Below are positions 1,512 to 4,835 of a stretch of DNA of 64,000 bases, one piece after another. The DNA is from an uncultured Ignavibacteria bacterium (GTDB lineage: Bacteria; Bacteroidota; Ignavibacteria; Kapaibacteriales; Kapaibacteriaceae): contig CAJAIA010000022.1 in assembly GCA_903939735.1 (NCBI GenBank), positions 62,001-126,000 of the forward strand, in the 5' to 3' direction. The stretch's first letter is position 1, and every line of letters starts with the position of its first letter. The translations under genes were made by a program, and so were the position numbers. Below the pieces are notes generated by a model. The model did not search any database, was not told the DNA's origin, and saw only the letters and a list, made by a program, of their open reading frames with translations.

Positions 1512-3284
1512 TTACTGTGGTTTCATGACATGTGATTCATACACGACACCAACGGGATCCGGTGTTGATGCCTTCCCAAGCACGAGTCCATGATATGCAT
1601 CAAGGAGTTCGTATGACATTCCGTTGAACTGCTGAACGTGCGAAGCGATATCTGCGAAGACATCAGAGCTTGACGTATAGGTCCATGTTGCACCGAGCTG
1701 CTTCGCAATGCTGCGGAGCACACTCCATGCTGGACGACAGTTACGCTGCTCACCGTTCGACCAACGATCGTTCGGAGCACCGAATTTATCCCAACGGCTC
1801 ATCTTCATGCCCATCGAACGAAGGTTCTCCTTCGTAACAACTGCAGGCTCGAAGCGCTGCACGCGGTGCAGCATGTTGGTGAACGTTCCTTCCGACTCTG
1901 CCCATGTTGACATCGGCAGGAGGATGTTTGCCTGCTTGGCCGTGACGGTGTCGTGTGAGCCAAGGACGATAAGCGTATCAACACCCGCTGACGCGTCGGC
2001 AAGTGATGGATGCGCGCTGAGATCTTCAGCCATCACGATCAAGGCCTTGATTTCGCCACGCTTGATACGATCTGCGACAGCGTCGATGCCGTGTCCGTCG
2101 CCACGTGGCGCGATGCCAACAGTGTGGGCGCCAATGGCATTCGGACTCTTGTCATTCACACGGAGGACGTCGTCGCCGAACGTGTGATCATTGTGCTTGA
2201 TGTAGTCAACGTTACCTGTCTTGAGTACGTCGTGTGCCAGGCGCGAGAGAACGTAGTTGTCTTCGTTCGACGCATGCGCTGATCCGATCACTGCGATCTG
2301 TGATCCCTTGAGATTGCGCAACGCTGCGGCAGCTGCCTCGATTGCCTCATCCCATGTTGTGCTCGCCAACTGTCCGTTCGTGCGGACCATCGGGCCATCC
2401 AAGCGTGCTTCATTGACGCGTGCAGGAGTCGACAGGCGACCTGTGTCACACATCCAGAACGTATTCACATGCATGTTCGTGCGTGGTTCTGTGCGCAGCA
2501 CTTCGTTGTTCATTACACCGATCTTGATGTTACAACCACGAGCGCAGCCCGGGCAGATCGAGTCGGTAAATGACATTTCCCATACACGGGCTTTGAAACG
2601 GAAGTCCATGCTCGTCAGGGCACCTACCGGGCAGATGTCAATGACGTTCATCGAGTACTCGCTGTCGAACGTTGTATCAGGGAACGTGCGAATTGTAACC
2701 TTATCACCTCGCTGCACGAATGACAGCACCGGCTGCTTGGCTACTTCATCAGCAAAACGGATACAGCGGGAGCAGGAAATGCAGCGCTCTCCGTCGAACA
2801 TGACGTTCGGACCGAGCTCGACACGCTTTTCCTTCTGTGTTTTTTCTTCGTTGAATCGGCTCTTGCCCTTGGAGTGCATGAACGCGTATTCCTGGAGCTT
2901 GCACTGACCCGCTTCGTCACAAATCGGACAGTCCAGCGGGTGGTTGATGAGCAAGAACTCCATCACGGCATTCTGCGCACCTTCGGTCTTCTCGCTTGAC
3001 GTGTCGACGATCATGCCATCCGATACCGGCGTGGCACACGCGATCTGCATCTTCGGGAACCAGTTGACCACTGGAGCTCCGTCGTCGCTGAACATCAGCG
3101 AGCCATCGGTGTCCTTCTTGTGAGTGCCGACATTCACAAGGCACATGCGGCAGTTCCCCGCTACAGTGAGTGCAGGGTGCCAACAAAAGTGCGGGATCGT
3201 AATCCCGTTGTCGAGTGCGGCCTCAATAATGGTCTTGCCTGGGGCTGCCTCGATGATGCGACCATCAATGATGATTTGGGGCAT
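1512..3284 (-). CDS. nuoG: NADH-quinone oxidoreductase subunit G
   Basis: This is the largest peripheral subunit of complex I and carries several Fe-S clusters of the electron chain. At 590 residues it is the short form; the E. coli protein is much longer. In order there are an N-terminal [2Fe-2S] ferredoxin domain (HFCWHPALTVAGNCRMCLV near residue 33), a His/Cys cluster region with DCPICDEAGQCKLQEYA, a dicluster-type CISCSRCIRF, a further CPGCARGCN motif, and a molybdopterin-oxidoreductase-like domain in the C-terminal half. It is the first gene of a GHI block. A TATGTTTG -7 element lies 47-54 bases upstream of the ATG at 3284. No nuoE or nuoF is next to it. Confidence 0.95.
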   Translation of the reverse strand: MPQIIIDGRIIEAAPGKTIIEAALDNGITIPHFCWHPALTVAGNCRMCLVNVGTHKKDTDGSLMFSDDGAPVVNWFPKMQIACATPVSDGMIVDTSSEKTEGAQNAVMEFLLINHPLDCPICDEAGQCKLQEYAFMHSKGKSRFNEEKTQKEKRVELGPNVMFDGERCISCSRCIRFADEVAKQPVLSFVQRGDKVTIRTFPDTTFDSEYSMNVIDICPVGALTSMDFRFKARVWEMSFTDSICPGCARGCNIKIGVMNNEVLRTEPRTNMHVNTFWMCDTGRLSTPARVNEARLDGPMVRTNGQLASTTWDEAIEAAAAALRNLKGSQIAVIGSAHASNEDNYVLSRLAHDVLKTGNVDYIKHNDHTFGDDVLRVNDKSPNAIGAHTVGIAPRGDGHGIDAVADRIKRGEIKALIVMAEDLSAHPSLADASAGVDTLIVLGSHDTVTAKQANILLPMSTWAESEGTFTNMLHRVQRFEPAVVTKENLRSMGMKMSRWDKFGAPNDRWSNGEQRNCRPAWSVLRSIAKQLGATWTYTSSSDVFADIASHVQQFNGMSYELLDAYHGLVLGKASTPDPVGVVYESHVMKPQ

Positions 3285-3330
3285 TGCTGTCCTTCTTGTT
3301 TCCTATCGATCGCGTACGTCCTGAATCGAG

Positions 3331-3338
3331 CAAACATA
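3331..3338 (-). promoter_or_regulatory. Bacteroidota-type -7 promoter element (TATGTTTG) for nuoGHI
   Basis: On the minus strand the sequence matches TAnnTTTG exactly, about 47 bases before the nuoG start. The upstream bases GAATTCTCG are shared exactly with the tRNA-Val promoter at 20934-20950. I did not find a convincing -33 TTG at the ideal spacing. Confidence 0.6.
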
Positions 3339-3377
3339 CGAGAATTCAACGTCTTCCCAGCGTGGTCGTGTGTTACC

Positions 3378-3385
3378 TATCTTCG
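3378..3385 (+). promoter_or_regulatory. probable -7 element (TATCTTCG) for the outer-membrane protein gene
   Basis: TATCTTCG differs by one base from the TAnnTTTG consensus. The same 8-mer occurs before three other genes in this window (5847, 49601 and 59477). It lies 30 bases before the ATG at 3416. Confidence 0.4.
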
Positions 3386-3415
3386 AAGAATTGTTTCTCA
3401 TGCAAGGATGGTTCC

Positions 3416-3988
3416 ATGCGTCGGTTTCTGGCTGTGTTGACTCTGTGCGTGCTTGCAAGCGTATCGGCATGGTCCCAATCGGGTCGAACGTTTCTTCCCG
3501 CCTCCCTGAGCTACCTAGCGCCGGTCGGATTGTTGGCCGATAGCTTGGGTGCATCACCAGGCATTGGGTTCGCATTAGGATATGAGGTCCAGCTAGATCG
3601 CCATCACTGGCGCGCTGGTGTCCGCGGTACGTGGATGCAGTCTGCGCTGGGTAAGGGGCTCGGAGGCGACTTCGCCGATTACATGACGACGTATTATCAG
3701 CTTCTGGCAACCATCCGTTACAGCGTGTTCAAGCATGGCTGGACGCCGTATGCGCAAGCCGAGGGTGGCCTGGGGTTCCTGGCGCTGAACAAGCTGGTCA
3801 ACAATATGCCTATCCGACTTGACGAGGTCTCGGCCGTGCGGGGTTCCTTTGGGGCATCACTGGGCGTGCTGATCCCAATCTCCGACGTGATGGATGTGGA
3901 CGTGAGCGGACGTTACAGTTATGCAGCCATCGATGATGGCTATGCGCTTCTGGGCATCCATGCTGGCGTGAGTTACGCCCTTCGCTAA
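3416..3988 (+). CDS. small outer-membrane beta-barrel-like protein
   Basis: A 190-residue exported protein of unknown specific role. I chose the ATG at 3416 because it gives a clean signal peptide (MRRFLAVLTLCVLASVSAWSQ, cleavage near residue 20) and has AAGGA eight bases upstream; the frame stays open further upstream without sensible sequence. The mature part is about 170 residues with alternating aromatic and polar stretches and repeated Gly-rich turns, ending in a strand with terminal VSYALR. This resembles the eight-stranded OmpA/OmpW-type barrels common in Bacteroidota. It stands alone, divergent from nuoG and convergent with the HisA-like gene four bases downstream. The barrel assignment is inferred from residue pattern only. 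Confidence 0.65.
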   Translation: MRRFLAVLTLCVLASVSAWSQSGRTFLPASLSYLAPVGLLADSLGASPGIGFALGYEVQLDRHHWRAGVRGTWMQSALGKGLGGDFADYMTTYYQLLATIRYSVFKHGWTPYAQAEGGLGFLALNKLVNNMPIRLDEVSAVRGSFGASLGVLIPISDVMDVDVSGRYSYAAIDDGYALLGIHAGVSYALR

Positions 3989-3992
3989 CGGG

Positions 3993-4835
3993 TCAGTCGG
4001 CCGTTGGCTTCTGCTCGGGACTGCTTGACCTGTCGAGCAGAGAAATCGACGACTGTACGCCGCTTCGTGACGCATGCGCATGAATTTCTGGTTCGAGTTC
4101 AGCCTCGGCAATGCGCCAGATGTTCTGACACGGAAACCGGTTCTCGTACATCGCACGACCGATCACGACGCTGTCGACATTCCGCGGCACACGCTGCTCA
4201 AGCTCCCAGAGATGTGCAGGCGAAGCAATGCCCCCTGCCATAGTGATGCGGAGCTTTGCAACGTCGGCAATGCGAAGAATGGTGTCGATGTCCTCGCCGC
4301 TGAGATTCCCCTCCCAGTCGACCTCGGTGTAGATGATGCGCTGCGCACCTAGTGATGCGACATGTCGAATGTACACGTCGTCGGCGATGCGCTGTCCGTC
4401 CCCAACATCGATTGCACCGTTGTGTCCGCGTACGCTAAAGATGACGCGACTCGGACCAAAACTCCGAATCAGCGCAGCTGTCTCCTCGGGAGCATTCCAC
4501 GCTTCAACATTGATGGCTACACGATATACGCCTGCTTCGAGTAAGGCACGATACTCGTCGATCGACTGCTGTCGGGAGATGAATTGGATCGGAACATCCA
4601 CCGCACGCTGCATCTCGATTACCGACTCTGTGTTGCGAGGATCATGTACGCCACGCAGCGAATCAATGTCGGTCACGTGAATGCACTTGGCATTTTCGCG
4701 ACGCCATAGTTGTGCCAACTCTACGGGATGCGCACTGATCTCTGAGTACAACTGCTCAGTCCCCTCCACACCACGAATACATCGCAAGGCATGGCCTTGG
4801 GTGAGATCGATCGCGGGAATGATCAGCAATTGCAT
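3993..4835 (-). CDS. divergent HisA-like (beta-alpha)8 barrel protein
   Basis: A 280-residue member of the HisA/HisF phosphate-binding TIM-barrel family. HisA isomerises ProFAR in histidine biosynthesis. Preserved features are the first-strand IIPAIDL with its catalytic Asp (residue 10), the YTEVDWEGNLSG segment with the Thr corresponding to the T. maritima active-site Thr, and the second phosphate loop AGGIAS followed by VVIGRAMYE. The usual third-strand phosphate loop (V.VGGG.R) is replaced by IQFISRQQS, and the second catalytic Asp (usually LD.R) is replaced in FSVRGHNG. About 40 extra polar residues follow the barrel. It is eight bases downstream of ruvA, with no histidine genes nearby. 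Either a diverged HisA or a relative with another substrate. Confidence 0.7.
   Translation of the reverse strand: MQLLIIPAIDLTQGHALRCIRGVEGTEQLYSEISAHPVELAQLWRRENAKCIHVTDIDSLRGVHDPRNTESVIEMQRAVDVPIQFISRQQSIDEYRALLEAGVYRVAINVEAWNAPEETAALIRSFGPSRVIFSVRGHNGAIDVGDGQRIADDVYIRHVASLGAQRIIYTEVDWEGNLSGEDIDTILRIADVAKLRITMAGGIASPAHLWELEQRVPRNVDSVVIGRAMYENRFPCQNIWRIAEAELEPEIHAHASRSGVQSSISLLDRSSSPEQKPTAD

What the first reader, a model, noticed from the sequence alone, without database searches (positions are those of the whole stretch)
3993..4835. HisA-like barrel lacking one phosphate loop and a catalytic Asp
The strand-3 phosphate loop V.VGGG.R reads IQFISRQQS, and the aspartate of the LD.R motif is gone (FSVRGHNG), while the first Asp, the active-site Thr and the second phosphate loop AGGIAS remain. 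HisA needs two phosphate sites for its two-phosphate substrate, so loss of one site suggests a substrate with a single phosphate. The gene is next to ruvA, not in a his operon. It could be a new isomerase or a non-catalytic family member.
Basis: partly seen in the sequence, partly recalled or inferred. Interest (0 to 1): 0.5.

Follow-up and report, generated by a model that had tools for sequence, protein, structure and literature searches.

The report
Repurposed HisA left after pathway loss
This bacterium appears to have lost the pathways for making histidine and tryptophan but keeps one altered histidine-pathway enzyme gene, next to a DNA-repair gene, and many relatives do likewise, which suggests that the old enzyme was given a second, still unknown job.

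Summary
In detail: ORF 3993-4835 (-) is a HisA-fold barrel without the strand-3 phosphate loop or strand-5 Asp, and with Glu for the strand-6 catalytic Asp. It is the only HisA/HisF-like gene in the genome apart from a Dus. HisB, HisD, HisG, TrpF and TrpC were searched for and not found, so it is neither a paralogue beside a canonical hisA nor a TrpF stand-in. It belongs to a HisA lineage marked by FxCQxxW in helix 8. Of sampled copies, 27 of 27 beside hisH/hisF keep all eight canonical residues, 0 of 40 from the window's order do, and 3 of 51 other orphans do; nine structural residues are kept in 118 of 118. In the class 241 of 294 genomes carry the gene; 147 of those have no HisB. It follows ruvA in 31 of 38 loci of the order. 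There the active-site face is released while helix 8 stays conserved, the pocket has conserved new Arg, Trp and Glu, and the window's family has a conserved tail motif. Best reading: a stranded HisA exapted to a non-histidine role, more likely binding than catalysis; a new single-phosphate isomerase is a close rival.

The parts
3993..4835 (-). HisA-lineage orphan barrel (H), 280 aa
4844..5440 (-). ruvA, upstream neighbour in the same direction, 8-base gap
   Evidence: Pfam RuvA_N, HHH_5, RuvA_C; adjacency in 31 of 38 loci of the order
4806..4808 (-). Asp10, strand-1 catalytic Asp, retained (D 27, E 12, K 1 of 40 in the order)
4686..4703 (-). RRENAK (R45-K50), part of the invariant signature
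   Evidence: R45 and N48 in 118 of 118
4563..4589 (-). former strand-3 phosphate loop, IQFISRQQS
   Evidence: GGG and Arg 27/27 operonic; GGG 0/40 in the order
4416..4439 (-). strand-5 motif FSVRGHNG; Asp replaced by Arg136
   Evidence: D 27/27 operonic, R 33/40 in the order
4308..4331 (-). strand-6 motif YTEVDWEG; Thr170 kept, Asp replaced by Glu175, Trp174 gained
4221..4238 (-). strand-7 phosphate loop AGGIAS, retained
4113..4136 (-). helix-8 signature FPCQNIWR
   Evidence: F234, C236, W240 in 118 of 118
4041..4055 (-). conserved QSSIS in the low-confidence C-terminal tail
   Evidence: 21 of 21 of the window's family; 0 of 27 other sequences, of which 20 are orphans of other families and 7 are HisA/HisF homologues

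Best explanation
The gene descends from the native hisA of its wider group. It was stranded when the rest of the histidine pathway was lost, and was kept for another job; in the window's order it is no longer a ProFAR isomerase. Shown by sequence: common descent with operonic HisA, loss of the catalytic set, absence of marker genes of the His and Trp pathways, intact ORFs and fold, frequent coupling to ruvA, release of the active-site face while helix 8 stays conserved, and a new tail motif. Inferred: it now acts mainly by binding. The barrel may still hold a one-phosphate ligand at the strand-7/8 site, with Arg136, Trp174 and Glu175 at its mouth, while the helix-8 side and the tail meet a partner protein. 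Co-expression points to the RuvA side of recombination or to a housekeeping role, but no partner is shown.
For: PF00977 genes of the genome: this ORF and a Dus. No HisB, HisD, HisG, no TrpF or TrpC. Tree (quick method): this lineage, operonic and orphan, is one clade with SH-aLRT 100, apart from 11 other HisA of class genomes, 10 of them with hisF beside them. Eight canonical residues all kept: 27/27 operonic, 0/40 window order, 3/51 other orphans; nine-residue signature 118/118. In several class families the orphan keeps downstream neighbours of the his-operon copies. Entropy of the active-site face relative to helices 1-7 rises from 0.46 (9 operonic copies of the class) to 0.83 (36 of the order) while helix 8 stays at 0.58 and 0.55. 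dN/dS 0.118. Models: pLDDT 91.6, and 92.5 for a far more degenerate member. Tail motif 21/21. ruvA adjacency 31/38, six families.
Against: The acid/base pair survives as carboxylates in most of the order (Asp/Glu10 39/40, Glu175 36/40) and the pocket has conserved new residues, which also fits an enzyme. Helix-8 conservation is not new in orphans: the class's own operonic copies show it too, and against those 9 alone the contrast of active-site face with helix 8 has p=0.054; the p=0.001 rests on phylum-level copies. So helix 8 may be conserved for structure. ruvA linkage is absent in 7 of 38 loci of the order, five of them one whole family, and in 37 of 37 loci outside the order. The gene was not found in several lineages of the order. 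It evolves faster than its neighbours (dN/dS 0.118 against 0.034-0.077).
Confidence: 0.48

Rival explanations
1. It is an active enzyme with a new, smaller substrate: an Amadori-type isomerase for a one-phosphate sugar amine, using Asp10 and Glu175, with Arg136 and Trp174 in place of the second phosphate site.
For: Asp/Glu10 39/40, Glu175 36/40, Trp174 34/40, Arg136 33/40 and the strand-7 Gly pair (37/40, 39/40) conserved in the order; replacements that are conserved, not random decay.
Against: The active-site face is less conserved, relative to other helices, than in any operonic set examined (0.83 against 0.41-0.53). Four members of one family of the order lost most of the pocket yet keep the signature. 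Other orphan clades lose different catalytic residues. No pathway neighbour suggests a substrate.
Confidence: 0.36
2. It stands in for TrpF (PRA isomerase), like SubTrpF of Actinomycetaceae, kept after loss of his genes.
For: Same kind of event, and the same Arg is missing in SubTrpF (passages of PMC5404923).
Against: TrpF and TrpC give no match in the genome; among 60 relatives TrpF matches in 9 and TrpC in 5.
Confidence: 0.03
3. It is still HisA in a divergent histidine pathway.
For: PF00977 membership and fold.
Against: No HisF, HisB, HisD, HisG match; catalytic residues lost; relatives G017 and G031 carry a separate HisA and HisF beside HisB.
Confidence: 0.03
4. It is a slowly decaying relic without function.
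For: Not found in several lineages; faster change than its neighbours.
Against: Open reading frames in all 40 copies of the order examined, dN/dS 0.118, nine residues kept 118/118, conserved replacements and tail motif.
Confidence: 0.05

Closest known systems
HisA (TIGR00007), most likely the Chlorobi-Rhodothermota type with a C-terminal extension (Del Duca et al. 2021, PMC8305728, passages read)
   Same: Fold, length, helix-8 FxCQxxW signature, common clade with operonic copies of the phylum
   Different: No other his genes found, catalytic set lost, next to ruvA. The passages I saw describe the extension and horizontal acquisition of the I. album and M. roseus his operons; they mention no stranded copy.
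PriA / SubTrpF / SubHisA (PMC5404923, passages read; PMC13055916, abstract and outline read)
   Same: A HisA-lineage enzyme retained after loss of his genes, with active-site changes including the second-phosphate Arg
   Different: SubTrpF kept a Trp-pathway activity; here TrpF and TrpC are not found either
HisF and HisF-like proteins (WbuZ, AglZ/HisF2)
   Same: Same barrel superfamily
   Different: Far below their cut-offs; no hisH ORF within 2.5 kb

Membership tests
His_biosynth superfamily (PF00977) | Score over curated cut-off 23.6 | tested here: met
   128.4 bits
HisA (TIGR00007) | Equivalog cut-off 228.95 bits | tested here: not met
   126.7 bits
HisA | Two phosphate loops, strand-5 Asp, strand-6 Thr and Asp | tested here: not met
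   Strand-3 loop lost, Asp to Arg136, Asp to Glu175; Thr170 and strand-7 loop kept
HisA | Rest of the histidine pathway in the genome | tested here: not met
   No match for HisF, HisB, HisD, HisG; HisC, HisE, HisH and HisI not searched genome-wide
HisA | ProFAR isomerase activity | not testable with these tools
   needs complementation or assay
HisA fold | TIM barrel superposing on HisA/PriA | tested here: met
   Z 26.3, rmsd 2.5, 224 aligned with 2y85_B; HisF structures score within about 1 Z of it
PriA/SubTrpF | Trp pathway present and lacking only TrpF | tested here: not met
   TrpF and TrpC both without match
HisF (TIGR00735) | Equivalog cut-off 294.55 bits | tested here: not met
   57.1 bits
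Native HisA lineage of this phylum (FxCQxxW type) | Common clade and nine-residue signature | tested here: met
   SH-aLRT 100, quick tree; 118 of 118

The most novel reading that the evidence does not exclude
HisA of this group has carried an ancient second function, unrelated to histidine and located on the helix-8 side of the barrel, which is already under extra constraint in the class's working HisA. That function kept the gene alive after both the histidine and tryptophan pathways were lost, and in the window's order it became tied to RuvA-linked recombination or replication.
Probability: 0.25. Interest if true: 0.8.

Novelty: new variant of a known kind. Interest (0 to 1): 0.6.

Why it matters
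HisA is a textbook one-step biosynthetic enzyme. Here a large set of genomes seems to have thrown away the pathway yet kept this single enzyme, then let its active site erode in different ways while a structural signature stayed constant. That points to an unrecognised function of the HisA barrel and offers a natural series, from intact operonic HisA through partly eroded to fully altered copies, on which exaptation can be tested. It also shows that annotation as HisA would mislead in these genomes.

Tried and rejected
TrpF replacement: unlikely, TrpC is not found either. Canonical hisA elsewhere in the genome: none; the second PF00977 match is a Dus. Link to loss of RuvC: RuvC matches in 59 of 60 relatives, with or without the gene, so no correlation. 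Domain fusions: two long open frames (L184, L130) show PF00977 (L130 also a weak overlapping Dus match) and no second domain. A common neighbour across the class: none seen; neighbours differ by clade. rarA follows the gene in two genomes of one genus (L126, L129) but was not found beside it in L184 of the same family, where only 5.5 kb was fetched. Literature: the listings of 8 paper searches (open-licence PMC only) showed no report of an orphan HisA in these bacteria.

Mended on re-checking: I first wrote that constraint moved to helix 8 in the orphans. One search shows that the class's own operonic copies (n=9) already have a conserved helix 8; what changed is the active-site face. I lowered the main reading from 0.52 to 0.48 and raised the isomerase rival from 0.33 to 0.36 for this reason. 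dS was not computable (printed -1) in several pairs, so the dN/dS of this gene rests on one close pair.

Limits of the counts. The 118 sequences are a sample: 41 from the order search and (one of them, L039, from outside the order), 37. 'Orphan' means that no hisH or hisF ORF was found within 2.5 kb in the fetched stretch. Two of the three complete 'orphans' (L150, L155) are phylum-level relatives whose his genes may simply be scattered; the third (L169) is in the class and its genome has HisB and a separate HisA. For the class, one search found 269 of 294 at E <= 1e-8; 28 matches weaker than 1e-45 (read from the listing) were set aside, some of which may be divergent copies; of the remaining 241, 94 have HisB and 147 do not (set arithmetic). 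In the tree one row labelled foreign (L214) is the native copy of G266 fetched twice, leaving 11. The tree is a quick one with flagged long branches; three rows of another family and L039 fall inside the window-order clade, so that order's copies are not strictly one clade. The entropy tests used 36 of 40 order copies and 45 of 51 other orphans; region borders were set by hand from the model.

Full report
What is there. ORF 3993-4835 (-) is a complete 280-residue barrel of the HisA superfamily. Its model has mean pLDDT 91.6 and superposes on HisA/PriA and HisF structures (2y85_B: Z 26.3, rmsd 2.5, 224 aligned). The strand-5 Asp aligns to Arg136. Which residues are catalytic is recalled knowledge of HisA/PriA, in part confirmed by passages of PMC5404923.

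The genome around it. The genome (2.47 Mb, listed 100% complete) has two PF00977 matches, this ORF and a Dus. HisB, HisD and HisG give no match, while 13 of 14 control genomes ring. TrpF and TrpC give no match, while 14 of 14 controls ring. By these markers it makes neither histidine nor tryptophan. HisB matches in 9 of 60 relatives. Named records that match best are Candidatus Kapaibacterium and Ignavibacteria MAGs.

Where it comes from. A profile of 41 sequences (A1) matches 269 of 294 genomes of the class at E <= 1e-8. Setting aside 28 weak matches leaves 241, of which 94 have HisB and 147 do not. In the phylum many families carry the lineage while others show only weak matches, as expected of ordinary HisA of another type. 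Of 20 phylum-level copies extracted, 18 lie beside hisH or hisF and all 20 keep the eight canonical residues. In a quick tree of 130 rows, orphan and operonic copies form one clade (SH-aLRT 100), apart from 11 other HisA of class genomes, 10 of which have hisF beside them. The label orphan needs at least three changes on the starred branches of that tree. Del Duca et al. (PMC8305728, passages read) describe a C-terminal HisA extension shared by Chlorobi and Rhodothermota and infer horizontal acquisition of the his operons of Ignavibacterium album and Melioribacter roseus. My reading is that the native hisA stayed behind. In several class families the orphan still has downstream neighbours of the operonic copies: purE, a PfkB kinase and others, and genes that I read, without a family search, as serS and an NAD-dependent sugar epimerase or reductase.

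What changed and what did not. In 27 operonic copies the eight canonical residues (Asp10, three Gly, Arg90, Asp136, Thr170, Asp175) are all present. In the window's order 0 of 40 are complete and each keeps 0 to 3 of them. Among other orphans 3 of 51 are complete. Different orphan clades lose different residues: strand-1 Asp to Glu, strand-6 Thr to Gln, strand-6 Asp to Asn or Val. Yet R45, N48, R105, R166, D221, S222, F234, C236 and W240 are kept in 118 of 118.

Conservation by region. Relative to helices 1-7, the entropy of the active-site face is 0.46 in the 9 operonic copies of the class, 0.53 in 18 of the phylum, and 0.83 in 36 of the window's order: this face was released. For helix 8 the figures are 0.58, 0.99 and 0.55: it is conserved in the class whether or not the gene is in a his operon, and not in the phylum-level copies. 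The order against all 27 operonic copies gives p = 0.001 for the contrast of the two regions, against the 9 class copies alone p = 0.054. Residues conserved in the order but not in operonic copies include Arg136, Trp174, Glu175, Ala200 and Trp210. In the window's family the low-confidence C-terminal tail carries QS(S/T)(I/L)(S/T) in 21 of 21 members, in 0 of 27 other sequences and in 0.12% of shuffled tails. A far more degenerate member, with most pocket residues gone, is still predicted as a full barrel (pLDDT 92.5). dN/dS to the nearest relative is 0.118, against 0.072 for ruvA, 0.034 for the NuoG-like and 0.077 for the PdxH-like gene (the last two names are mine).

Neighbourhood. ruvA lies directly upstream on the same strand in 31 of 38 loci of the order, over six families whose other flanks differ (NADH dehydrogenase genes in some; in one family genes that I read, without a family search, as ftsQ-ftsA-ftsZ), and is absent in the five loci of a seventh family. 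Outside the order 0 of 37 loci with context have it. RuvC is present with or without the gene.

Interpretation. The loss of marker genes of both pathways, the dispersed erosion of catalytic residues and the steady retention of fold, signature and ORF make continued HisA or TrpF activity unlikely. Between a binding protein and a new one-phosphate isomerase the data lean modestly to binding, because the active-site face was released while helix 8 and a tail motif are held. The conserved carboxylates and new pocket residues keep the enzyme reading open. That helix 8 was already constrained in the class's working HisA fits a second function older than the loss of the pathway, but structure alone could explain it. 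The precedent is PriA, kept after gene loss and turned into SubTrpF (PMC5404923, passages read); here the protein outlived both pathways.

Noticed in passing
L126:6475-8073, L129:8721-10112: In one genus of another family rarA/mgsA (RuvB-like AAA+ ATPase) directly follows the orphan gene; not found beside it in L184 of the same family.
   Followed up: partly
window 3993-4835 against L032: The gene has dS 0.50 to its nearest relative while ruvA and the NuoG-like gene have 0.12 and 0.16, as if this gene alone had been exchanged or evolves faster.
   Followed up: no
L032: The MAG is titled Melioribacter roseus but its copy groups with Kapaibacterium-type sequences; the record name looks wrong.
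   Followed up: no
L122, L132, L133; L124, L125, L134: Other orphan clades have their own steady neighbours: a cNMP-binding protein and a universal stress protein in one, a PorZ-like protein in another.
   Followed up: partly
G029, G032, G037, G044: Four relatives have a TrpF match but no TrpC match.
   Followed up: no
window 3284-3988: An outer-membrane beta-barrel protein gene converges on the orphan gene and is kept next to it in much of the window's family.
   Followed up: no
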